Below, piece by piece: positions 1 through 8,637 of a stretch of DNA of 8,637 nucleotides. The stretch's first letter is position 1, and the number at the start of each line of letters is the position of its first letter. Location: assembly GCA_002474415.1 (NCBI GenBank), contig DLQV01000071.1, positions 1 to 8,637 of the forward strand, given 5' to 3'. Under the pieces are notes generated by a model, which was not told the origin of the DNA, made no database searches, and saw only the letters and a list, made by a program, of their open reading frames with translations. The translations under genes were made by a program, and so were the position numbers. This stretch comes from Lachnospiraceae bacterium UBA7598. GTDB lineage: Bacteria; Bacillota; Clostridia; Lachnospirales; Lachnospiraceae.

Positions 1-315
1 AAGTGCGCCGTCATAAATCATAATTGCAGTCCACCCTACAAGCTGTAACACATTTAAGACAGCAAACAGAAGGCTTCCTCTCTCTCCAAAACTCATTTTC
101 ACTGTTTCCATGGCGCTTTTTCGTTCTTTGGCTCCAATCATTCCTGCAGCAAACATCATAAGTCCGCCGATCAGATGTCCCAGTAAAATTGCTGCCATGG
201 CTTTTCCAAATCCAAGCGGTGCAAAATAAGTACCTGTCAGTATTTCCGCCAGGGATACACCTGCACCAAACCAAATTAATCCGTTACTGAACACGGAAGT
301 TCCTTTTTTTTCCAT
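1..315 (-). CDS. cytX: CytX-type hydroxymethylpyrimidine transporter, N-terminal part
   Basis: This is the first 105 codons of a membrane transporter; the reading frame stays open to the window edge, so the 3' end is missing. The start is the ATG at 315-313, with an AAGAGGAG ribosome binding site at 323-330, seven bases upstream. The protein opens with FSNGLIWFGAGVSLAEILTG, followed by the loop APLGFGKAMAAI, a hydrophobic stretch GHLIGGLMMFAAGMIGA (about 46-62) and a third one around LFAVLNVLQLVGWTAIMI (83-100). This matches the CytX branch of the NCS1 nucleobase transporters, which are assigned to import of hydroxymethylpyrimidine (HMP). It follows thiD, the kinase for that substrate, after 51 bp, which supports the assignment. 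The gap holds a small CCGGC/GCCGG inverted repeat (345-349 and 359-363) without a T tract, so it is not an obvious terminator. No TPP riboswitch fits in the gap. Confidence 0.85.
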   Translation of the reverse strand, partial: MEKKGTSVFSNGLIWFGAGVSLAEILTGTYFAPLGFGKAMAAILLGHLIGGLMMFAAGMIGAKERKSAMETVKMSFGERGSLLFAVLNVLQLVGWTAIMIYDGAL

Positions 316-366
316 TTGTACACTCCTCTTAACCTATGATAAACCCGGCCTCACATTTGCCGGATA

Positions 367-1161
367 CTAATATTCTCCTTCAATTGCAAATGCATGGTCC
401 ATTGGTCCGCTTCCTTTTCCAAGGTCAAGCATGGCGGCAAGTGCACCGGAAATATAATTTTTTGCATACTTCACCGACGTTTCAAGATCTCTTCCTTTTG
501 CAAGGTTTGATGCAATCGCAGAAGAAAGCGTACAGCCTGTCCCGTGTGTATTTGGATTGTCAATCCGCTTTCCCTCAAACCATACCGGCTCTTTTCCCTT
601 CTGGAAGAGTAAGTCATTGGCATCATTTAACTGATGACCGCCCTTTAATAAAACGGCACAGCCCAATGTGTCACAAATAATTTCTGCTGCTTGTTCCATA
701 TCTGCATTGGTTTTGATCTGCATTTCGGAAAGCACTTCCGCTTCCGGAATATTTGGCGTGATCACCGTTGCAAGCGGTAATAATTTACTTTTCAATGTGC
801 TGATGGCATCTTCACTGATCAGTCTTGCCCCACTGGTTGCCACCATAACAGGATCTACGACAATATTTTTTGCGTGATACTCTGTCAGCTTCTGTGCAAT
901 CGTCTCAATCAGTTCACTGGAAGCAACCATTCCGGTTTTAATTGCATCCGGATAGATATCCGTAAAAATACTGTCCAACTGCTCTGCCAAAAACTTTGGA
1001 GTCACCTCCATAATATCTGTTACACCGGTCGTATTCTGGGCAGTCAAAGCCGTGATCGCGCTCATTGCGTAAACATGGTTTGCTGTCATTGTCTTAATAT
1101 CTGCCTGAATGCCGGCACCTCCACTGGAATCACTTCCAGCAATTGTTAATGCTGTGTACAT
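367..1161 (-). CDS. thiD: Hydroxymethylpyrimidine/phosphomethylpyrimidine kinase ThiD
   Basis: ThiD phosphorylates HMP to HMP-P and then HMP-PP, the pyrimidine half of thiamine, in the cytoplasm. At 264 residues it is full length for the family. Visible signatures of the ribokinase-like fold are GSDSSGGAGIQADIKT (9-24, substrate loop), DPVMVATSG (103-111), TPNIPEAEVL (135-144), LLKGGH (171-176) and the C-terminal anion-hole motif THGTGCTLSSAIAS (205-218), with Cys210 in the position of the catalytic cysteine. The start is ATG at 1161-1159. Its AAGGAGG ribosome binding site (1167-1173) overlaps the TAA stop of the upstream GGDEF/EAL gene, which indicates co-transcription and probably coupled translation. 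cytX follows downstream. No ThiE domain is fused to it. Without other thiamine genes in the window, the pair reads as a salvage module. Confidence 0.95.
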   Translation of the reverse strand: MYTALTIAGSDSSGGAGIQADIKTMTANHVYAMSAITALTAQNTTGVTDIMEVTPKFLAEQLDSIFTDIYPDAIKTGMVASSELIETIAQKLTEYHAKNIVVDPVMVATSGARLISEDAISTLKSKLLPLATVITPNIPEAEVLSEMQIKTNADMEQAAEIICDTLGCAVLLKGGHQLNDANDLLFQKGKEPVWFEGKRIDNPNTHGTGCTLSSAIASNLAKGRDLETSVKYAKNYISGALAAMLDLGKGSGPMDHAFAIEGEY

Positions 1162-1171
1162 ATCATCCTCC

Positions 1172-3799
1172 TTATATTAGATATTTCTTTTCAAAATCTT
1201 CGATCTTCATCGGTTTTCCATAAAAATACCCCTGAATCATATGGATACCCATCTTTTTTACAATATCTCTCTGGCGCTTAGTCTCCACACCTTCCACGCA
1301 TACGCGTACATTGATGGCATTTGCCAGTTCCGAAACCATCCGCACAAAGGCATTGGAAAAATCGTCCTCGCCCAGATGTTCAATAAAACAACGGTCAATC
1401 TTGATGACATCCAAAGGCATCTCCCGGATATGATTGAGGGATGAATATCCTGTTCCAAAATCATCCAGTGCCACGCGTACACCAAGACTCCGGATCTCAC
1501 TTAATATCTTCTTCATCCGGACCATATCATTGATCGCCAGACTCTCCGTTACTTCCAGTGTCAGATTCTGTGGTGTGATACGGGTTTCTTCCAGAACCTT
1601 CGCTATCTTTTTTACAATGTCATTCTGCAACAGCTGTACAACCGACAAATTTACATTGACATGATAATCCGGATGCCCCATGTCATTCCAGTATTTACAC
1701 CGCAATGCCGCATTTCTCATTACATATTCTCCGATCGGATTGATCAGTCCCAGGTACTCTGCAAGCGGAATAAAATCTGCCGGATTCACAAAACCAAGCG
1801 CTCTGGAATTCCAGCGGATTAACGCTTCCGCACCACAACACGGTTCCCCTGGCTGACAGACATCGATGATCGGCTGATAAAACACTTCAAATTCCGTACA
1901 TGCGTTCATGGCTGCGGTACGCATATTTTTTTCCAGATCCAATCTGCGGTAAGAGGAAGACGCGTCCATCTCATCATAATATTCCACACGGTTTTTGCCC
2001 CTGCGTTTTGCCGACAGCAGAGCAATATCTGCCTTGCGGACAAGTTCCTCCACCGTTTTTCCGTCCTTCGGGAAATATACAATTCCCATACTCATGGTGC
2101 AATAATAATCTTCTCCCTTTAAAAACCACGGTTTCTTAAATATGGATGTCACATCCCGCACAATCCGTTCCAGCTCCGGATACATGGAATCCGGAACAAT
2201 CACAACAAACTCATCTCCCCCCATACGGTAACAGGTATTTTCAACGCCATCTACCCTGCGCAGACTATGGGAAATTGCCTTTAACAGAATGTCTCCATAC
2301 TGATGTCCCAGACCATCATTGATATGTTTGAAATCGTCCAGATCCATATAAAGCAACGCCCCTGTTGCTTCTTTTTTCCGTGTCTTTCGAATAAATTGCC
2401 CCAGATCCTGTTCGCAGCGCATGCGGTTAAACAGCCCTGTCAGGAAATCATTGTTTGCCTGGTTTTCAATCTCCTTCTGATAAATTTTCTTTTCGGTAAT
2501 ATCATAGAGTGTACACATGGCAACTTTTCTACCATCCACCCAGTCAATCTCGGTCTTATGCACATCCAGCCAGCGTTCCTCAACAACCGAATAAATTTCC
2601 TCATAATACTGGCTGCGCTTTGTTTCCCTGTCGGAAAAAAGCATCTTTTCCAGATGATTTCCTGCGATACTGCGGGAGAAAAGTTCTTTGAATTTGTGAT
2701 TCATATAAAGAATCGAATTCGTATGATAATCAACTACATAAATTCCACATCCGGTATTTTCCAGAATTGCCTCTAAAGATGTATAGGAACTTGCCAGCGA
2801 ATTCTTTGCAATTCTTTTGAGCATGATACTCTGCACAACTCTTCGCACATCACTGACAAATTTGATATCTCTGTTCTCCCAGATTCTTGTTTTTTCATTA
2901 TCATACACGCAAAAATACATTGCCGTGCGGTTTTGTATTTCAATCGGTTCAAAAATTCCGGCACTGATATGACAGGTTTTAAATAAATGTGCAAACGGTT
3001 CCGGCATGATGGAGTCCGATGAGATCATATAAGGCTTACCATTATAAAACGGCAGTGCATCGATCGGAATATTCTGTCCCTCCGCAATAACGGAATTGTC
3101 TGGTTCTTTTGTATACTCGCAGATCATGTCCGCCGTATTTTCCCCCACATTCTCGCGCAGCAGACATCCACCGGAAATTTCCAGACTTTCGCATGTTTCC
3201 CGCAAAATATCCTCAACCACTTTTTCGAAACTGTTATCCGAATCCATCATCTGCAAAATTTCGGTCATTGCCCGGCTGCGATGCAGCTGATATTCCATCG
3301 CCAGTTCGGAAACAGAACTCTTTTCCATTGCTTTCTGCGCAATCATCTGATTTCTGCGACTTTCAAACAACTGTCCGGAAAGCAGTGACAAAAACTCTAC
3401 CGATGCATAAAATTGTTCTTCCGTTGTAATAAGCATTTTCTCCGGCAAATGCGTCTCCGGTGTCAGATGCTCCTTTATAATGCCCATAACAATCCAGACA
3501 ACCTGCAGCTGATCTTCTACTTTTGTGGAAACAGCACACAATTTCATAAAGTCCTGTGCCGTCTCCCGTTCCACAACCGTTTCCATCCGGTCATGCTGCA
3601 TCTGGTCTACCAGTTCCATATAGACATGTTTATCGACCAGTGTACGTAAAAACCCCACCTGTTCTTCCGTTCCAAACGGTTTTGTCACAACACCCTTATT
3701 TTTATCCACACACATCAGATACAAATGATCTGCACAGCAAAACTGATCCTGCAGCTGCTGCAACATTGATATATCTATCAGATTCGTATCATCGTTCAT
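1172..3799 (-). CDS. Sensor GGDEF-EAL protein (PocR-like, GAF, PAS, GGDEF, EAL)
   Basis: An 875-residue cytoplasmic c-di-GMP turnover protein with no predicted membrane segment. The N terminus (about 10-115, LQDQFCCADHLYLMCVDKNK onward) resembles PocR-type sensory domains. A helical linker leads to a GAF-like region (about 185-330) and a PAS domain (about 340-440, ending DITEKK). The diguanylate cyclase domain has DLDDFKHIND (486-495) and an intact GGDEF (527-531). The phosphodiesterase domain has EAL (658-660), NVNLS (715-719), EVTES (749-753), DDFGTGYSSL (779-788), KID (800-802), EGVE (836-839) and QGYFYGKP (856-863), so the usual metal and catalytic residues are present. An RxxD (514-517) lies nine residues before GGDEF rather than the canonical five, so the inhibitory I-site is doubtful. 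The gene starts 4 bp after the methyltransferase stop, and its ribosome binding site lies in that gene's last codons. Net direction of activity cannot be read from the sequence; the sensory ligand is unknown. Confidence 0.93.
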   Translation of the reverse strand: MNDDTNLIDISMLQQLQDQFCCADHLYLMCVDKNKGVVTKPFGTEEQVGFLRTLVDKHVYMELVDQMQHDRMETVVERETAQDFMKLCAVSTKVEDQLQVVWIVMGIIKEHLTPETHLPEKMLITTEEQFYASVEFLSLLSGQLFESRRNQMIAQKAMEKSSVSELAMEYQLHRSRAMTEILQMMDSDNSFEKVVEDILRETCESLEISGGCLLRENVGENTADMICEYTKEPDNSVIAEGQNIPIDALPFYNGKPYMISSDSIMPEPFAHLFKTCHISAGIFEPIEIQNRTAMYFCVYDNEKTRIWENRDIKFVSDVRRVVQSIMLKRIAKNSLASSYTSLEAILENTGCGIYVVDYHTNSILYMNHKFKELFSRSIAGNHLEKMLFSDRETKRSQYYEEIYSVVEERWLDVHKTEIDWVDGRKVAMCTLYDITEKKIYQKEIENQANNDFLTGLFNRMRCEQDLGQFIRKTRKKEATGALLYMDLDDFKHINDGLGHQYGDILLKAISHSLRRVDGVENTCYRMGGDEFVVIVPDSMYPELERIVRDVTSIFKKPWFLKGEDYYCTMSMGIVYFPKDGKTVEELVRKADIALLSAKRRGKNRVEYYDEMDASSSYRRLDLEKNMRTAAMNACTEFEVFYQPIIDVCQPGEPCCGAEALIRWNSRALGFVNPADFIPLAEYLGLINPIGEYVMRNAALRCKYWNDMGHPDYHVNVNLSVVQLLQNDIVKKIAKVLEETRITPQNLTLEVTESLAINDMVRMKKILSEIRSLGVRVALDDFGTGYSSLNHIREMPLDVIKIDRCFIEHLGEDDFSNAFVRMVSELANAINVRVCVEGVETKRQRDIVKKMGIHMIQGYFYGKPMKIEDFEKKYLI

Positions 3800-3803
3800 G
3801 CCA

Positions 3804-5279
3804 TTACCTCTTTACTCCTATAATTAACAAATAAAATCCTGTCTTACTCTGCATACAATATTCTTCCAAAAGAGAAAATTCCCTGTGAAGACGCAACTGT
3901 TTCTTCACAAATCCGATTTCTCCTGTATACATCACAATCACAGCTTCCTTTCCCAGAATGGTTAATGCTTTCCGGAAAAATTTCTCATACAGACTGTCCA
4001 GCTGCTCCCGCGTCATTTTTCCCCGCACCGGCATATTGGTTACAATCTCATCAAACAAATAGTCATGCTTGAAGTCAAAGAAATCCCTATGGATAAAATT
4101 AATCTGTTCCCCTGCCAGAGCCGCATTCTCCCGTGCTCCGTCAATTGCTTCTCCAAAAATATCCGTACCGTATTTTTCACGTGCCGGGACGCGGATATCC
4201 CGCTCAATCAGCATCGTTCCCACGCCACAAAACGGATCTATGATCTGTGCATTCTCTTTCAGATATGGAGCCGCCAGTTCCATAATCAACGCCGCAAGCG
4301 AAGGGTGCATGGAAGCTGCAATTGCATGTTTGCGATATGCAAACCGGTGATCTGGAAGCGTATAAAATTTCAATGCCGGGAAAAACTTTCCCTCACGATT
4401 TGCAACCAGCCGAAGTTCTACCTCATAATCTCCCGGAGAATTCACCAGTTTTCCACCCGACAACTGTTCGATGGCAGATCCCAGCTTTTTGACAAACCGG
4501 CTTCTTTGTTCCAGTGTCATTGCGGCTCTGCACTCAATCCGGAAAAAGAATGGCTTGTCTTCCCGGTGGTATTTTGCACAGATTGCAAGCATTGGCTTCC
4601 ACACCGCCTCTGCTGCTTTTTCCGGTTCCTGCTCCAGAAGTCCTTTGACCGGAAGCAAAAACAGCATGTCCCGATATGTGCGGATCTGCAACAGCTGCAA
4701 CAGATCATCCGTCTGTACAATCACACCGAGCGGATGCGCCTTTCCCCCGGTCTGATTTTCCAGTATTCCGCGATGATTGCGGTTTGTCACCAATAGTACA
4801 TGATTGTTCTTTTGTTTTATATCAAAATGATGGGTATCGATTCCTTCATACTGAATGAAGATTGCCCGCAGTGCCCGCAGTTCTGCTTCGCGATGTTTCC
4901 GGTTTTCTTCGGTGACCGGCTCTCCTTCCAACTCAGCCAGACGATCTTTCAGCTGCGGAAGGATTTCTTCTGCATGAAGTGCCTTCATAGCTTCCAGATA
5001 TGCACTTTTTACGAACAGTGTCTGTTCCCTGGTATATGCTTTCCAAAGCGGCTGCAAAGCATTCTGTACTGCCAGGTCTCCCAGAAGAAGCGCTGCATTC
5101 TTCCGTGTTTTTGCATCCTCTTCCTGTAGAAATCCAAACACCAGATCTTCATGCCCGCGCACAAATTCTATAGCCTGTGCTTTTTGCTCTTCCGTCGCTT
5201 CTTTCAGGCTGGCACGCAGAGCACTCAGATTACTTCTTACATTTTTCTTTTCCTGTAATTCCGTAAATAGTTGTATCAA
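3804..5279 (-). CDS. HEAT-repeat protein with C-terminal UPF0020/Trm14-like SAM methyltransferase domain
   Basis: A 491-residue soluble protein. Residues about 1-145 are helical and HEAT-like (for example AKTRKNAALLLGDLAVQNAL, 56-75). A middle region (about 155-320) could be a THUMP-like RNA-binding part, but this is a weak call. The C-terminal third is a Rossmann methyltransferase: SAM motif I is IIDPFCGVGTMLIER (346-360), followed by YGTDIFGEAIDGARENA (370-386). The motif IV position reads TNMPVRG (414-420) where N-methyltransferases such as RlmL or Trm14 carry NPPYG. The likely target is an RNA guanine, but the substrate is not shown by the sequence. The start is TTG at 5279-5277, chosen because AGAGGAG lies six bases upstream and the next in-frame Met is at about residue 98. 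It is the first gene of the run leading to the c-di-GMP gene, thiD and cytX. Confidence 0.85.
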   Translation of the reverse strand: MIQLFTELQEKKNVRSNLSALRASLKEATEEQKAQAIEFVRGHEDLVFGFLQEEDAKTRKNAALLLGDLAVQNALQPLWKAYTREQTLFVKSAYLEAMKALHAEEILPQLKDRLAELEGEPVTEENRKHREAELRALRAIFIQYEGIDTHHFDIKQKNNHVLLVTNRNHRGILENQTGGKAHPLGVIVQTDDLLQLLQIRTYRDMLFLLPVKGLLEQEPEKAAEAVWKPMLAICAKYHREDKPFFFRIECRAAMTLEQRSRFVKKLGSAIEQLSGGKLVNSPGDYEVELRLVANREGKFFPALKFYTLPDHRFAYRKHAIAASMHPSLAALIMELAAPYLKENAQIIDPFCGVGTMLIERDIRVPAREKYGTDIFGEAIDGARENAALAGEQINFIHRDFFDFKHDYLFDEIVTNMPVRGKMTREQLDSLYEKFFRKALTILGKEAVIVMYTGEIGFVKKQLRLHREFSLLEEYCMQSKTGFYLLIIGVKR

Positions 5280-5285
5280 AAATTT

Positions 5286-5292
5286 CTCCTCT
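5286..5292 (-). promoter_or_regulatory. Ribosome binding site that fixes a TTG start
   Basis: AGAGGAG on the minus strand, six bases before the TTG at 5279. No ATG or GTG is available in frame nearby, so this site decides the start of the methyltransferase gene. Confidence 0.75.
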
Positions 5293-5331
5293 GTTCCGTT
5301 AATTATTCAGAATACTTCCTATATTTAATTT

Positions 5332-5360
5332 ATTGTAGATGATTTTTTATTCTTTGTCTA
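5332..5360 (-). promoter_or_regulatory. Candidate sigma-A promoter for the methyltransferase/GGDEF-EAL/thiD/cytX run
   Basis: On the minus strand, TAGACA (5355-5360) matches the -35 consensus TTGACA at 5 of 6 bases. TACAAT (5332-5337) matches TATAAT at 5 of 6, with the ideal 17-bp spacer. The -35 lies inside the last codons of the amidase gene. The start codon is about 50 bases downstream, in an AT-rich leader without any THI-box or other riboswitch core that I recognise. The match is good by eye, but no transcript evidence is available. Confidence 0.6.
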
Positions 5361-6060
5361 CTCCATTTTTTGCAATATAAGCTGCCAGATCATCATGAAA
5401 ATCTTCCCATGCACTCTCATGTTCCACAAAATATTTCGGACAGTTTTTGCCTGTCACATCATAATGCCGGATCACATCCTCAATTCCAAGATCATATCTT
5501 CCGATCAGCCAGGTTGTCAATTGGATCAATGACTGATACGTACTGTCATTGAATTTTCCGGTGTCATCCGGAATACAGCATTCGATTGCGATTGTATCAC
5601 TGTTTCGGTTATTGGATGCATATGCGATTTCATTGCAGGGAATGCACTGTACAATTTCTCCATCCAGCCCGATCACGAAATGGCTGCTTGCCTTGGTCTG
5701 GTGAGATTGTTCCAGTCCTGCAAAATAGTTCCGGTTCTGGATGGCAGTTGTTCCTGGATTGGCCGTGTAATGAACAACAATTCCACGAATCTTTTTGAGT
5801 GCAATCCCCGGGCGGGAATATTTGTTGACCGGAAGCAGTTCCACGTCTAATTCCGGTCGCTGGTCAACGTATTTTTTATCTGTAATATCCCAGCTGCTGT
5901 CAGACACAGTCTGCTGCGTCCGGTCCTGCTTCACTTTATGTATGATCCCCAGAATTGATCCCAGCAAAATTACGGCAATGATAATCATTAAAATGCGCAG
6001 CTGCAGCTGCTCTTTTCTTGTTCTTCGTTTTTTATTTTTCTTTCGATAGGTTGGAGCCAT
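5347..6060 (-). CDS. Membrane-anchored N-acetylmuramoyl-L-alanine amidase (amidase_2 family)
   Basis: This 237-residue protein would cut the bond between N-acetylmuramic acid and L-alanine in peptidoglycan. A very basic N terminus (KKNKKRRTRK, 7-16) precedes a single hydrophobic segment (about 23-41, ILMIIIAVILLGSILGII), so it is a type II anchor with the catalytic part outside the cell. The amidase_2/PGRP fold shows VVHYTANPGT (95-104), SHFVIGLDGEIVQCIP (126-141), IAIECC (157-162) and RHYDVTGKNCP (198-208). By comparison with T7 lysozyme and AmpD, zinc ligands would be His97, His199 and Cys207, with Lys205 in the catalytic-lysine position. The start is ATG with AGGAG ten bases upstream. It is preceded by the long repeat region and followed after 67 bp by the methyltransferase gene, which has its own candidate promoter. 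A housekeeping or sporulation wall role is possible, and the sequence does not decide. Confidence 0.92.
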   Translation of the reverse strand: MAPTYRKKNKKRRTRKEQLQLRILMIIIAVILLGSILGIIHKVKQDRTQQTVSDSSWDITDKKYVDQRPELDVELLPVNKYSRPGIALKKIRGIVVHYTANPGTTAIQNRNYFAGLEQSHQTKASSHFVIGLDGEIVQCIPCNEIAYASNNRNSDTIAIECCIPDDTGKFNDSTYQSLIQLTTWLIGRYDLGIEDVIRHYDVTGKNCPKYFVEHESAWEDFHDDLAAYIAKNGVDKE

Positions 6061-6111
6061 AAATACATATCTCCTGTTTTGTTTTTGCTGCCCTTTGTGG
6101 GGGCTTATTTC

Positions 6112-6140
6112 TATCTTCTCACATATTGCGTATCTGTCAA
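6112..6140 (-). promoter_or_regulatory. Possible promoter for the amidase gene
   Basis: A perfect TTGACA -35 sits on the minus strand at 6135-6140. The hexamer at 17-bp spacing (AAGATA, 6112-6117) is poor, and GATAGA two bases further on is only 3 of 6. It is placed about 50-80 bases before the amidase start, in the right orientation and just outside the repeat island. The call rests almost entirely on the -35. Confidence 0.35.
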
Positions 6141-6143
6141 TGC

Positions 6144-6230
6144 TTTTTTCGATGCAATGGATTTGTGGGAATATTTTTAGATATAAGTTTTTTCAATGCA
6201 GTGGATTTCTACGAGTGTTTTAGATATAAG
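6144..6230 (+). repeat. Two tandem copies of a ~44-bp unit at the left edge of the repeat island
   Basis: Unit 1 is 6144-6187 and unit 2 is 6188-6230. Both begin TTTTTTC and end TTTTAGATATAAG, and they agree at 36 of 44 aligned positions with one gap. The end of unit 2 is also the outer tip of the left structured element. At the far end of the island, the minus-strand sequence before the right element reads GGGAAT then TTTTAGATATAAG, which matches unit 1 (6167-6187) better than unit 2. The unit therefore seems to be part of the element's outer border. Confidence 0.75.
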
Positions 6231-6423
6231 TTTTCTCAAAGTGACGGAAGAAGGCGTATATTCTCTTTCTACAGAAAAATTTCCAAGTTAGCTCTGGCGT
6301 TGGTTTCAAATTCTTTACGTAAATTTTATCATCTTACGCAATTCGCTTTATTGTAGTGTGTGCCAGAGCAAGTTGCAAATTTATTCTTCCGAAAGAAATA
6401 TACGTCTTCTCCCTGTTGGTTGG
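6217..6423 (+). ncRNA. Left copy of a structured repeat element (candidate RNA or palindromic mobile element)
   Basis: A 207-bp element whose ends match the right element (6776-7008) in inverted orientation. Read on plus it folds into stacked stems. P1 pairs 6246-6269 with 6391-6412 (22 pairs, a G-U pair at 6254/6405, single-base bulges at 6248 and 6263). P2 pairs 6277-6286 with 6373-6382, with one C/C mismatch. P3 pairs GCTCTGGC (6291-6298) with GCCAGAGC (6362-6369). The tip (6300-6360) is AT-rich and differs from the other copy. The G-U pairs work only if plus is the transcribed strand. It contains no convincing coding sequence. The fold is seen directly by complementarity; whether it is a functional RNA or a relic of a mobile palindrome is not shown. 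Confidence 0.6.
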
Positions 6424-6448
6424 AGAAAAGATAATTTGAAAAATGTGC

Positions 6449-6527
6449 TGGTATCTATACAAAGAAAATTTGCATCAAAAATACCGTTATGGTATCTATA
6501 CACTTAAAATTTAACATTTAGATACCA
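6449..6527. repeat. Paired TGGTATCTATAC repeats forming competing hairpins
   Basis: TGGTATCTATAC occurs twice as an exact direct repeat (6449-6460 and 6490-6501). The second copy can pair over nine bases with TAGATACCA (6519-6527). The first has a weaker local partner ATACC (6481-6485), but could equally take the 6519-6527 partner, so the two pairings exclude each other. The function is unknown. Confidence 0.6.
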
Positions 6528-6544
6528 CAAAGTCTCTATGGAAT

Positions 6545-6604
6545 AAAAATTGCTTCTTCAGGTACCATTTTTTCAAAAAATCGGTACCTGAAGAAGCAAT
6601 TTTT
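6545..6604. terminator. Perfect 22-bp palindromic hairpin, bidirectional terminator-like
   Basis: The 22 bases at 6545-6566 are exactly complementary to 6583-6604. The inner part ATTTTTT/AAAAAAT (6567-6573 and 6575-6581) extends the stem almost to the tip. On each strand the 3' arm ends in a run of T, as an intrinsic terminator would. The stem includes GGTACC and a GAAGAAGC tract but is not GC-rich. It lies between ilvE (ending 7024) and the amidase gene, so it could stop read-through in either direction. It may instead be a structural piece of the repeat island. Confidence 0.45.
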
Positions 6605-6611
6605 CTCTTAT

Positions 6612-6661
6612 AGGTGACATTCCTTTATTTTAGGCATTGAAAACAAGAAAATGTGTCACCT
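6612..6661. repeat. AGGTGACA/TGTCACCT hairpin
   Basis: AGGTGACA (6612-6619) pairs perfectly with TGTCACCT (6654-6661), enclosing an AT-rich loop of 34 bases. It is the fourth hairpin in a row after those starting at 6449, 6490 and 6545. All have a GGT near the 5' base of the stem and ACC near its 3' base. Confidence 0.5.
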
Positions 6662-6690
6662 TAATCTCTATTTTTTATCAATAAATCCCA

Positions 6691-6779
6691 TTTACAGAAT
6701 TTATGAAAATCGATCTTTTTCTTACACTTTTCCAATCTGCAGAATTTGTAAGAATCGTTTTTACTTATAATTTTCCCAA
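6691..6779 (-). repeat. ~45-bp tandem repeat, two full copies
   Basis: Unit 1 is 6691-6735 and unit 2 about 6736-6779. They share CAGAATTT, AATCG, TTTTT, CTTA and a TTTT..CCAA tail, with about 35 matching positions and short gaps. A degenerate tail of a third copy (TTTTTTATCAATAAATCCCA) precedes at about 6671-6690. The units lie just inside the right structured element and give short open frames an artificial repeated look. Confidence 0.6.
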
Positions 6780-7008
6780 CCAACAGGAAGACGGGGTACA
6801 TTTCTTTCGGAAGAATAAATTTACAACTGCGCCGTAGTTCCATCACATAACGCTAATAGCGTAAATGTAAAGCTTTTATAAAACCAACCTGAAATCAATA
6901 TCGGCGCAAGGCGATACATCAAAGATGTACCGCAGGACTTGTAAACTTTTTTGTAGAAAGAGAATGTACCCCGTCTTCCGTCACCTCGAGAAAACTTATA
7001 TCTAAAAC
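6776..7008 (-). ncRNA. Right copy of the structured repeat element, downstream of ilvE
   Basis: A 233-bp inverted relative of 6217-6423. Read on minus, P1 pairs 6979-6956 with 6808-6786: 23 pairs and one unpaired C, the same bulged C as in the left copy. P2 joins AAGTTTACAA (6948-6939) to the complementary strand near 6818-6827, with one G-U pair. P3 pairs CGGCGCA with TGCGCCG (plus positions 6902-6908 and 6828-6834). Two extra local hairpins lie at 6911-6933 (arms TACATC/GATGTA) and 6850-6862 (ACGCT/AGCGT). Stem sequences differ from the left copy but stay paired. It begins 15 bases after the ilvE stop on the same strand, so it would form part of the ilvE 3' end if that transcript reads on. 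No T tract follows P1, so it is not a standard terminator. Confidence 0.6.
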
Positions 7009-7023
7009 AATTCCCTCATAGAC

Positions 7024-8046
7024 TTACATAATCTTGTGAACCCAGCCTTCCGGTCCTTCAATCTCGCCCATCTGGATTCCGGTAAGTGTCTCACGCAGTT
7101 TCTTTGTGTATGGTCCCATTTCTTCCATTCCACTTGGGAAGCAGATCTCTTTGCCATGATCAACAACCTTTCCAATTGGAGAAATAACTGCTGCAGTACC
7201 GCAGAGTCCACACTCTGCAAAATCAGGTACTTCTGAGAATTTAACCTGTCTGTGCTCTACCGGCATATGCAGATACTTTTCAGCAACAACCATCAGAGAT
7301 CTTCTTGTAATGGAAGGTAAAATACTGTCTGACTTTGGTGTTACGAATTTTCCGTCTTTGGTAATGAAAATGAAGTTTGCTCCACCGGTCTCCTCTACAT
7401 AAGTTCTTGTAGCAGGATCCAGATACATATTCTCAGCATATCCCTGAGCATGTGCATCTACGATTGCATGTAAACTCATAGCGTAGTTCAGTCCGGCTTT
7501 GATATGTCCGGTTCCGTGAGGTGCTGCACGGTCAAAATCAGAAACACGGATTGTAATTGGCTTTGCGCCGCCCTTGAAGTAAGGACCAACCGGTGTACAA
7601 AATACACGGAACTGATACTCATCTGCCGGCTTAACGCCGATAACCGGGTTACTTCCGAACATATATGGACGGATGTAAAGAGTTGCTCCAGAGCCATATG
7701 GTGGTACCCAGTCAATGTTTGCTTCCACCGTCTTTACGACTGCATCTACCCACTTATCTTCTGGATATACAGGCATCTCCAGACGCTTGCAGGAATCTGC
7801 CATACGGGATGCATTTAAGTCAGGACGGAAAATAACGATCTGTCCCTTCTCTGTTGTATATGCCTTCAAACCTTCAAAACATGTCTGTGCATACTGAAGC
7901 ACGCCTGCACACTCACTCAGAGTAACGGTTGCGTCATCTGTCAGCACACCGTCATCCCATGCACCATTCTTGTAGTTTGATACGAAACGCTTATCTGTCT
8001 GCACATAGCCAAAGCCGAGTGAAGACCAATCAATATTTTTGCTCAT
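7024..8046 (-). CDS. ilvE: Branched-chain amino acid aminotransferase
   Basis: This PLP enzyme of fold type IV interconverts leucine, isoleucine and valine with their 2-oxo acids, using glutamate/2-oxoglutarate, in the cytoplasm. At 340 residues it fits the longer branched-chain aminotransferase group (IlvE_II type, also in eukaryotic BCATs). Visible signatures are QTCFEGLKAY (54-63), YIRPYMFGS (124-132), GHIKAGLNYAMSL (180-192) with Lys183 as the PLP Schiff-base lysine, YVEETGGANFIFI (216-228) and CGTAAVISPIG (282-292) near the cofactor phosphate. The start is ATG with AAAGGAAG eight bases upstream. ridA lies 130 bp upstream on the same strand. That gap has a candidate promoter but no T-box element that I can see. 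The 3' side runs directly into the repeat island. Confidence 0.96.
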   Translation of the reverse strand: MSKNIDWSSLGFGYVQTDKRFVSNYKNGAWDDGVLTDDATVTLSECAGVLQYAQTCFEGLKAYTTEKGQIVIFRPDLNASRMADSCKRLEMPVYPEDKWVDAVVKTVEANIDWVPPYGSGATLYIRPYMFGSNPVIGVKPADEYQFRVFCTPVGPYFKGGAKPITIRVSDFDRAAPHGTGHIKAGLNYAMSLHAIVDAHAQGYAENMYLDPATRTYVEETGGANFIFITKDGKFVTPKSDSILPSITRRSLMVVAEKYLHMPVEHRQVKFSEVPDFAECGLCGTAAVISPIGKVVDHGKEICFPSGMEEMGPYTKKLRETLTGIQMGEIEGPEGWVHKIM

Positions 8047-8176: not shown

Positions 8177-8557
8177 TTATTTTTTGAGTGCAATTGCCTC
8201 GATTTCAATCTTCACGTCCTTTGGAAGTCTTGCAACCTCTACACAGGAACGCGCCGGACAGTCCTTCTCAAAGAATGTCGCATATACTTCATTCACTGCG
8301 GCGAAATCATTCATATCCTTGATAAATACGGTTGTCTTTATCACATGGTCTGCATCACTGCCTGCCTCGTTTAACAGTGCAATCAGGTTTCCAATCGCCT
8401 GCTTTGCCTGTGCCTTGACATCGCCTGTCTCAAGTTCACCTGTCTCCGGAATGATCGGAATCATACCAGATGTATAAATCATATCTCCCACTGCAATTGC
8501 CTGTGAATACGGTCCAATTGCTGCCGGTGCCTTTGGTGTCTGAATCACTGTCTTCAT
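8177..8557 (-). CDS. ridA: RidA family 2-iminobutanoate/2-iminopropanoate deaminase
   Basis: RidA hydrolyses reactive enamine/imine intermediates such as 2-aminoacrylate, released by PLP-dependent serine/threonine dehydratases, to harmless 2-oxo acids and ammonia; it is a cytoplasmic trimer. At 126 residues the protein is of standard length. It shows AIGPYSQAI (13-21), YTSGMIP (28-34), the ..CPARSCVEVARLPKDVKIEIEAIA C-terminal block (from 100), with Arg103 as the substrate-carboxylate arginine and Glu120 as the conserved acidic residue. The start is ATG with AGGAGGT nine bases upstream. It sits directly before ilvE. IlvE is one of the enzymes shown in Salmonella to lose activity when RidA is absent, so the neighbourhood fits the known role. 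Confidence 0.95.
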   Translation of the reverse strand: MKTVIQTPKAPAAIGPYSQAIAVGDMIYTSGMIPIIPETGELETGDVKAQAKQAIGNLIALLNEAGSDADHVIKTTVFIKDMNDFAAVNEVYATFFEKDCPARSCVEVARLPKDVKIEIEAIALKK

Positions 8558-8571
8558 AATATAAGTACCTC

Positions 8572-8637
8572 CTATTGTGGTGTTGCCCCCTCACATTCGT
8601 TCGGCGGCATGTCGTCGGCGCATCCTAAATATGTGCT
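8572..8637 (-). CDS. Possible C-terminal end of an unidentified upstream gene
   Basis: One minus-strand frame is open from the window edge to a TAG at 8574-8572, giving 21 residues that end ADDMPPNECEGATPQ. Its stop overlaps the ridA ribosome binding site, the arrangement expected in an operon. It is too short to identify, and the open frame could be chance; the other two frames have stops within this stretch. Confidence 0.3.
   Translation of the reverse strand, partial: STYLGCADDMPPNECEGATPQ

What the first reader, a model, noticed from the sequence alone, without database searches (positions are those of the whole stretch)
6217..7008. Two facing copies of a structured element with compensatory base changes
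The copies at 6217-6423 (plus) and 6776-7008 (minus) keep the same stacked stems P1-P2-P3 although the bases differ. In P1 three pairs have changed on both sides: T6259-A6400 corresponds to C-G (6966/6799), C6255-G6404 to G-C (6970/6795), and A6252-T6407 to C-G (6973/6792). A fourth pair, G6254-U6405, is G-C in the other copy (6971/6794). Both keep the same bulged C. P3 is GCTCTGGC/GCCAGAGC in one and CGGCGCA/TGCGCCG in the other: unrelated sequence, yet fully paired. This suggests selection on a fold, as in a structured RNA or a hairpin handled as single-stranded DNA. I do not recognise it as a known family.
Basis: partly seen in the sequence, partly recalled or inferred. Interest (0 to 1): 0.75.

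Follow-up and report, generated by a model that had tools for sequence, protein, structure and literature searches.

The report
Facing hairpins of a jumping repeat
The two facing hairpins in this Roseburia window belong to a gene-less hairpin repeat family scattered through at least eight related genomes; they are likely the two ends of a small mobile DNA element rather than an RNA gene.

Summary
In detail: the four P1 pairs, the extra C and both P3 stems are as described, and both copies fold far better than shuffles. The window is Roseburia faecis-like.

The copies belong to a hairpin repeat family: 10 full cores in R. faecis M72 and matches in 8 of 62 genomes of its genus. Between species the stems differ yet stay paired: 22 of 24 pairs change on both sides; 90.7% of cells pair, against 33-44% in slid controls. 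A few unpaired bases are kept.

Three results favour mobile DNA over an RNA gene. G-U is 0.6% of standard P2/P3 pairs, against 8.2% in 23 tRNAs from the fetched loci. Between two close genomes, same-locus stem changes broke pairs 36 times and compensated 3 times, and stems change as fast as flanks. In genome G048 all 7 facing pairs join one A and one B hairpin, and identical B cores lie on different contigs.

Most likely a REPIN/MITE-like non-autonomous element with long hairpin ends, moved in trans. The enzyme, a target-site duplication and movement itself are not shown.

The parts
6175..6239 (+). Left-arm sequence TTTTAGATATAAGTTTT(T/C)TCAA present twice, 43 nt apart (tandem half-arm before copy 1)
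   Evidence: the repeat finder family D1
6217..6429 (+). Hairpin copy 1, subtype A. P1 6246-6269/6391-6413, P2 6273-6286/6373-6387, P3 6291-6298/6362-6369; core 6273-6387
   Evidence: Fold z -6.4; alignment A1; coordinates; core found by model R2
6449..6526 (.). Linker hairpin GGTATC...GATACC
   Evidence: Sequence; fold of the region; same module in M72 copies
6536..6613 (.). Linker hairpin: inverted repeat with 38-nt arms, 84% complementary over the whole arms, with A and T runs at its ends (terminator-like)
   Evidence: the repeat finder I3
6613..6660 (.). Linker hairpin GGTGACA...TGTCACC
   Evidence: Sequence; fold of the region
6771..7007 (-). Hairpin copy 2, subtype B, facing copy 1. P1 6956-6979/6786-6808, P2 6939-6952/6812-6826, P3 6902-6908/6828-6834
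   Evidence: Fold z -8.2; alignment A1; coordinates
6909..6935 (-). 27-nt insertion, itself hairpin-like, present in copy 2 and in none of the other 17 R. faecis copies aligned
   Evidence: A1; fold; coordinates

Best explanation
The two copies are inward-facing members of a multi-copy, non-coding family of long DNA hairpins that is likely a non-autonomous mobile element, predicted to be moved in trans by an unidentified enzyme that would recognise the folded core. Shown: hairpins of about 200 nt or more with a few kept unpaired core bases and exchanged but still paired stems; two subtypes, A and B, that face each other in composite units; no gene inside; presence in 8 of 62 genomes of the genus; loss of pairing in place at single loci. 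Inferred: A and B are the two ends of the moving unit, and the family keeps its pairing because only copies that still fold get copied, so compensation accumulates in source copies and stops after insertion. Arm-to-arm templated repair may add to it. Tandem half-arms and hairpins nested in hairpins likely arise by repeated insertion, deletion and recombination among copies.
For: Repeat family: 14 blastn matches in M72, 10 full cores; G008 6, G040 6, G045 12, G030 1; G010 1, G037 8, G048 26. Covariation between species: 22 of 24 pairs, 90.7% paired vs 33-44% slid. G-U 4, A-C 6 among 736 P2/P3 cells against 46 G-U in 559 tRNA pairs. Same-locus changes: 36 broken, 3 compensated; stem rate equals flank rate. 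All 7 facing pairs of G048 are A+B; 3 of 5 two-hairpin pieces of R. faecis are A+B. Boundary word GGCTGCC in 21 of 24 and GGCAGCC in 22 of 25 G048 ends in view. Identical B cores on contigs C113 and C83. Composites without long reading frames: longest 44-77 codons in 7. Half-deleted copies.
Against: No target-site duplication: outer flanks of 5 G048 composites share no consistent word. No empty site found; the one locus tried was a half-deleted copy. No autonomous copy or linked transposase found in M72. Within hairpins, paired sites differ less than unpaired ones (65/1448 vs 47/633, p 0.008), which some selection on the fold or arm repair could cause. G008, G040 and G045 all carry a copy after the same histidine kinase gene, unexpected for random insertion. 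Subtype C+A (M72 C70) and A+A (L002) pairs break the A+B rule.
Confidence: 0.68

Rival explanations
1. A structured non-coding RNA, or an RNA-mobilised SINE-like element: the fold works as RNA, and the compensatory changes reflect selection on the transcript.
For: Covarying stems with kept unpaired bases across species; folds with z -6.4 and -8.2; along whole arms G-U slightly exceeds A-C (36:27 and 94:75; B copies of G048 49:32); paired sites change less than unpaired.
Against: G-U nearly absent in P2/P3 and no commoner than A-C (4 vs 6; tRNA control 8.2% G-U); A copies of G048 lean the other way (6:16); pairing lost in place; facing copies in one unit cannot both lie in sense in one transcript; no Rfam match. 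Transcription was not tested.
Confidence: 0.14
2. Palindrome bookkeeping only: stems stay paired because one arm is copied onto the other during replication (quasi-palindrome correction), with no recognition of the fold.
For: Almost pure Watson-Crick stems; swaps such as G-C to C-G without intermediates.
Against: Unpaired core bases are kept while stems change; 36 uncorrected pair breaks against 3 compensations at shared loci; does not explain many copies or A+B facing units.
Confidence: 0.1
3. A dead relic family: once mobile, now only decaying and recombining, possibly kept as terminators between genes.
For: Half copies; R. faecis loci compared are shared between strains; linker hairpin 6536-6613 looks like a two-way terminator.
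Against: 26 copies in G048 with two identical B cores on different contigs; absence from 54 of 62 genus genomes.
Confidence: 0.08

Closest known systems
REPINs / BIMEs (inverted REP doublets, RAYT transposases)
   Same: Inverted doublets of palindromes as the proposed mobile unit, extragenic, with compensatory changes on both sides described as common (PMC3116915, abstract and passages).
   Different: REPs are 20-40 bp and usually above 100 copies per genome (abstracts of PMC3733652 and PMC2817692 in the listing); here each half is about 200 nt or more, with 1-26 cores per genome and no RAYT found in M72.
MITEs
   Same: Non-coding, AT-rich, intergenic, terminal inverted repeats, highly base-paired (features as given in PMC3049150 and PMC10969869, passages).
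   Different: No target-site duplication and no parent insertion sequence found; each end is itself a large hairpin with a core kept across species.
BOX elements of pneumococcus
   Same: Modular composite repeats with predicted folds, flanking modules and a variable middle (PMC3049150, passages).
   Different: Different size and organisation (two facing hairpins); sequences of the two were not compared here.
IS200/IS605 ends
   Same: Secondary structures near the ends recognised by the transposase (abstract of PMC6006769 in the listing).
   Different: Hairpins here are far longer (recalled size of IS608 hairpins), face each other as inverted repeats, and lie 19 kb or more from the broken IS605 of M72.

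Membership tests
REPIN | Two inverted palindromic repeats forming the unit | tested here: met
   7 of 7 two-core contigs of G048 with facing A and B hairpins; window and M72 C37
REPIN | Short REP (20-40 bp) in high copy | tested here: not met
   Hairpins of about 200 nt or more; 1-26 cores per positive genome
REPIN | Associated RAYT (Y1) transposase | tested here: not met
   M72 only: Y1 matches are IS605-type fragments 19 kb or more from the hairpins; other positive genomes not tested
MITE | Non-coding, intergenic, terminal inverted repeats | tested here: met
MITE | Target-site duplication | tested here: not met
   5 G048 composites with both outer flanks in view, no consistent repeat; a short or target-like word such as TATA (2 of 5) is not excluded
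MITE | Ends shared with an autonomous insertion sequence | tested here: inconclusive
   M72: 11 sites with up to 3 mismatches to the end pattern; the 6 with up to 2 lie in known copies, the 5 with 3 were not examined; other genomes not tested
Structured RNA family (Rfam) | Match to a curated family | tested here: not met
   no match at or above a gathering score on the hairpins
Structured RNA gene | Discrete transcript | not testable with these tools
   No expression data
Structured RNA gene | Pairing kept at each locus by compensation, with wobble pairs | tested here: not met
IS200/IS605 | Y1 transposase linked to the ends | tested here: not met
   M72 only
BOX element | boxA/boxB/boxC modules | not tested
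   Resemblance from passages of PMC3049150 only

The most novel reading that the evidence does not exclude
A new class of transposable element whose two ends are distinct long folded hairpins (A and B) sharing an unpaired recognition core, excised and inserted as folded single strands by an enzyme not yet described, and growing by inserting into its own kind to give hairpins nested in hairpins.
Probability: 0.2. Interest if true: 0.72.

Novelty: new variant of a known kind. Interest (0 to 1): 0.5.

Why it matters
Compensatory base changes are normally read as the mark of an RNA gene. Here they likely come from a DNA repeat that is selected only while it spreads, and two cheap tests (share of G-U pairs; fate of pairs at shared loci) tell the two apart. 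If the mover is found, it would be a transposition system of common human gut bacteria with unusually large folded ends. Two metagenomic contigs join loci exactly through these repeats, so they may also drive rearrangement or mislead assembly.

Tried and rejected
Rfam: no family. Exact patterns in viral contigs and genome contigs gave nothing; plasmids nothing. Blastn over 62 genus genomes found only M72, and the first, narrow model found 1 of 397 family and 2 of 392 order genomes, M72 included in both (stricter filters, 9 candidates scored per genome). That looked like a one-species repeat until wider models showed otherwise. RAYT/HUH origin in M72: only IS605-type fragments. Autonomous copy in M72: none at the 6 best end sites; 5 weaker sites not examined. 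Empty site at the prfB locus of G040: it was a half-deleted copy. Inversion of the window element relative to the amidase, suggested by L001, was set aside: L001 and L002 each join two M72 loci, which recombination or misassembly could equally cause. PDDEXK_2 nuclease as mover: in G045 one 301-aa neighbour matches PF12784, while two 339-aa and one 118-aa neighbours match no Pfam family; not pursued. Literature: ten searches listed no description of such repeats in Roseburia, Eubacterium rectale, Agathobacter or Lachnospiraceae; listings only, open-licence PMC papers only, and only 10 of 54 hits were shown. Papers opened: abstract and passages of PMC3116915, passages of PMC2267715, PMC3049150, PMC10969869.

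Full report
What is in the window. The window is from a Roseburia faecis-like chromosome: its amidase is 96% identical (aa) to that of R. faecis M72, and DNA matches at 94-97% over 1-6148 and 86% over the aminotransferase. The finding lies in the gap between the aminotransferase (7024-8046, -) and the amidase (5347-6060, -). Both copies fold much better than shuffles, and Rfam has no match to them.

A repeat family in R. faecis. Copy 1 gives 14 blastn matches in M72, genome G001; 10 full cores are found there by model R3. Five unannotated human-fecal records filed as phage also carry copies or parts; the stretches compared match M72 at 95-99%, so they are most likely bacterial contigs. The 18 full copies aligned fall into subtypes A (GCTCTGGC stem), B (GCGCCG) and others; two (C70b of M72 and its strain counterpart L005, here called C) have wholly different P1/P2 letters. 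In that alignment 37 P1/P2 pairs are 95.0% paired, 18 with changes on both sides, against 47-58% and 1-5 for slid partners. The two C rows carry a good part of this: among the 16 other copies 8 of 37 pairs show more than one Watson-Crick type. The largest unit, on contig C37 of M72, is about 1.25 kb: a B hairpin, an array of smaller hairpins, then an A hairpin facing back, with closely similar ends; its longest stop-free stretch is 108 codons. At the 12 M72 places looked at, 4 of them fragments, the repeat lies between long ORFs or just touches an ORF end, in divergent, co-directional and convergent gaps alike.

A family across species. A covariance model of the 114-nt core (P2, P3, P4 and loops) built from 8 B and C copies found one relative in another genus member, G008. 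Models rebuilt with more members gave matches in 4 of 40 relatives of G008, 24 of them in the genus and all 4 among those, and in 4 of the other 38 genus genomes, M72 included: 8 of 62. The first 24 were searched with the narrower model R2, so this is a lower bound. Cores: G001 10, G008 6, G040 6, G045 12, G030 1, G010 1, G037 8, G048 26, two of those in G045 weak (E 9e-4 and 4e-3); blastn with one G008 copy lists 15 places in G008 and 12 in G040.

Covariation between species. Alignment A9 holds 38 cores from the window and five genomes (G001, G008, G040, G030, G045). It leaves out the strain counterparts L001-L005, two M72 copies, near duplicates, the two weak G045 matches, and G010, G037 and G048, found later. 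22 of 24 pairs change on both sides; 90.7% of cells pair against 33-44% when slid; no shuffle of 500 reaches four of the five measures, but 83 of 500 reach the fifth, further pair types. P2 and P3 are 92.5% and 98.2% paired; P4 only 66.7%, so P4 is doubtful. This alignment was fitted to the structure and leans towards it; A1 was not. The row of window copy 2 is partly misaligned because of its insertion. Of the unpaired columns 11 are kept in at least 80% of rows: T17, T33, C36, G38, ATG-GAA (110-116) and G128; 13 of 48 stem columns reach that too, 35 do not.

RNA or DNA. In P2 and P3 of A9 there are 690 Watson-Crick, 4 G-U, 6 A-C and 36 other cells (P4 left out, where A7 has 4 G-U and 11 A-C). 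G-U is 0.6% of standard pairs; 23 distinct tRNAs from the fetched loci have 46 G-U in 559 pairs, 8.2% (ARAGORN draws only standard pairs, so this control says nothing on A-C). If one strand were selected as a fold, G-U should exceed A-C. Along whole arms the G-U:A-C counts are 36:27 in R. faecis and 94:75 in the others; against subtype consensus in G048 they are A 6:16 and B 49:32; among R. faecis A/B copies 5:8 events. There is no steady bias; the larger sets lean to G-U.

Fate of single copies. G008 and G040 share 10 loci compared here (11 comparisons, one locus having a tandem pair in G008). Using the fold of the G008 copy, 661 pairs are unchanged; 31 single changes broke a Watson-Crick pair, 5 broke a G-U pair, 13 gave G-U, 8 went from G-U to Watson-Crick; 3 double changes compensated, 1 broke; 4 pairs met gaps. 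One decayed locus (L219/L227) supplies 12 of the 31 and 2 of the 5. Paired sites differ at 65 of 1448 (4.5%), unpaired sites at 47 of 633 (7.4%, p 0.008) and flanks at 181 of 4819 (3.8%, p 0.22 against paired; flanks include genes). So stems change as fast as their surroundings, though less than the loops. Close R. faecis pairs hardly differ; M72 against the window at the amidase-side copy gives 11 broken, 4 to G-U and 1 compensated. Another G008 copy is half deleted in G040. Single copies lose pairing in place, while the family keeps it.

Two ends. In G048 seven contigs hold two cores on opposite strands with starts 244-631 nt apart, always facing and always one A with one B. GGCTGCC bounds 21 of 24 outer ends in view and GGCAGCC 22 of 25 inner ends. 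The seven composites have no reading frame over 77 codons. B cores on contigs C113 and C83 are identical; median identity is 94% among 16 B, 93% among 8 A and 72% between A and B (the divergent copies L260 and L267 left out). In R. faecis five pieces hold two hairpins: window A+B, L001 A+B, M72 C37 B+A, M72 C70 C+A, L002 A+A; L001 and L002 each join two M72 loci and may be chimeric. More inverted repeats surround some G048 B hairpins, and L260, L264 and L267 sit inside palindromes of their own locus (read by eye). The outer flanks of five G048 composites show no consistent direct repeat; L255 and L257 share TATA.

Mechanism. Shown: structure, dispersal, facing A and B, decay in place, patchy presence. 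Inferred: a non-autonomous mobile element, A and B as its ends, recognition of the folded core in trans, and selection on the fold only during copying. Unknown: the enzyme, the strand state, the target, and whether any copy still moves. The best precedent is the REPIN, where inverted doublets of palindromes are proposed as the mobile unit and compensatory changes are called common (PMC3116915). Size, copy number and the lack of a linked RAYT in M72 speak against filing it there. MITE features are met in part.

Verdict. Observation confirmed; interpretation partly supported. A new variant of a known kind (mobile palindromic repeats), interest 0.5.

Noticed in passing
window 8575-8637 (-): GA-cis RNA (RF02987), 49.5 bits against a gathering score of 34.7, cut by the window end, just upstream of the RidA-like gene 8177-8557 (-).
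   Followed up: no
L001-L005 (MT837983, MT837195, MT836634, MT838206, MT835935): Five 'UNVERIFIED: Bacteriophage sp.' records from human feces match the R. faecis M72 chromosome at 95-99% over the stretches compared; likely bacterial DNA filed as phage.
   Followed up: partly
L001 1-1500; L002 1-2480: Each contig joins two loci that lie apart in M72 (C59 with C70; C37:187k with C37:153k), through the repeat: recombination or misassembly.
   Followed up: partly
L195 (G008), L161/L231 (G040), L188 (G045): All three genomes carry a copy behind what looks like the same histidine kinase gene, with species-specific stems: shared ancestry with homogenisation, or a preferred site.
   Followed up: partly
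L185 4544-4656 and 6104-6216; L187 4839-4951 (G045): Three copies lie 53-111 nt from ORFs that look like Rpn-type nuclease genes or their pieces; one is PDDEXK_2 (PF12784), the others match no Pfam family.
   Followed up: partly
L163, L166, L169 (G045) upstream of the core: Left half-arms repeated in tandem before the full hairpin, as with the 43-nt half-arms of R. faecis.
   Followed up: no
L216, L220 (G008) against L223, L228 (G040): Two direct copies about 230-240 nt apart in G008 where G040 has one: tandem gain or loss.
   Followed up: partly
L196, query positions 513-562: A separate repeat of about 50 bp with several matches in G008 and G040.
   Followed up: no
G001:C70:134704-138162 (L157-L159): IS605-type element with an interrupted tnpA and an open 367-aa tnpB-like frame, plus a second tnpA-like fragment.
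   Followed up: partly
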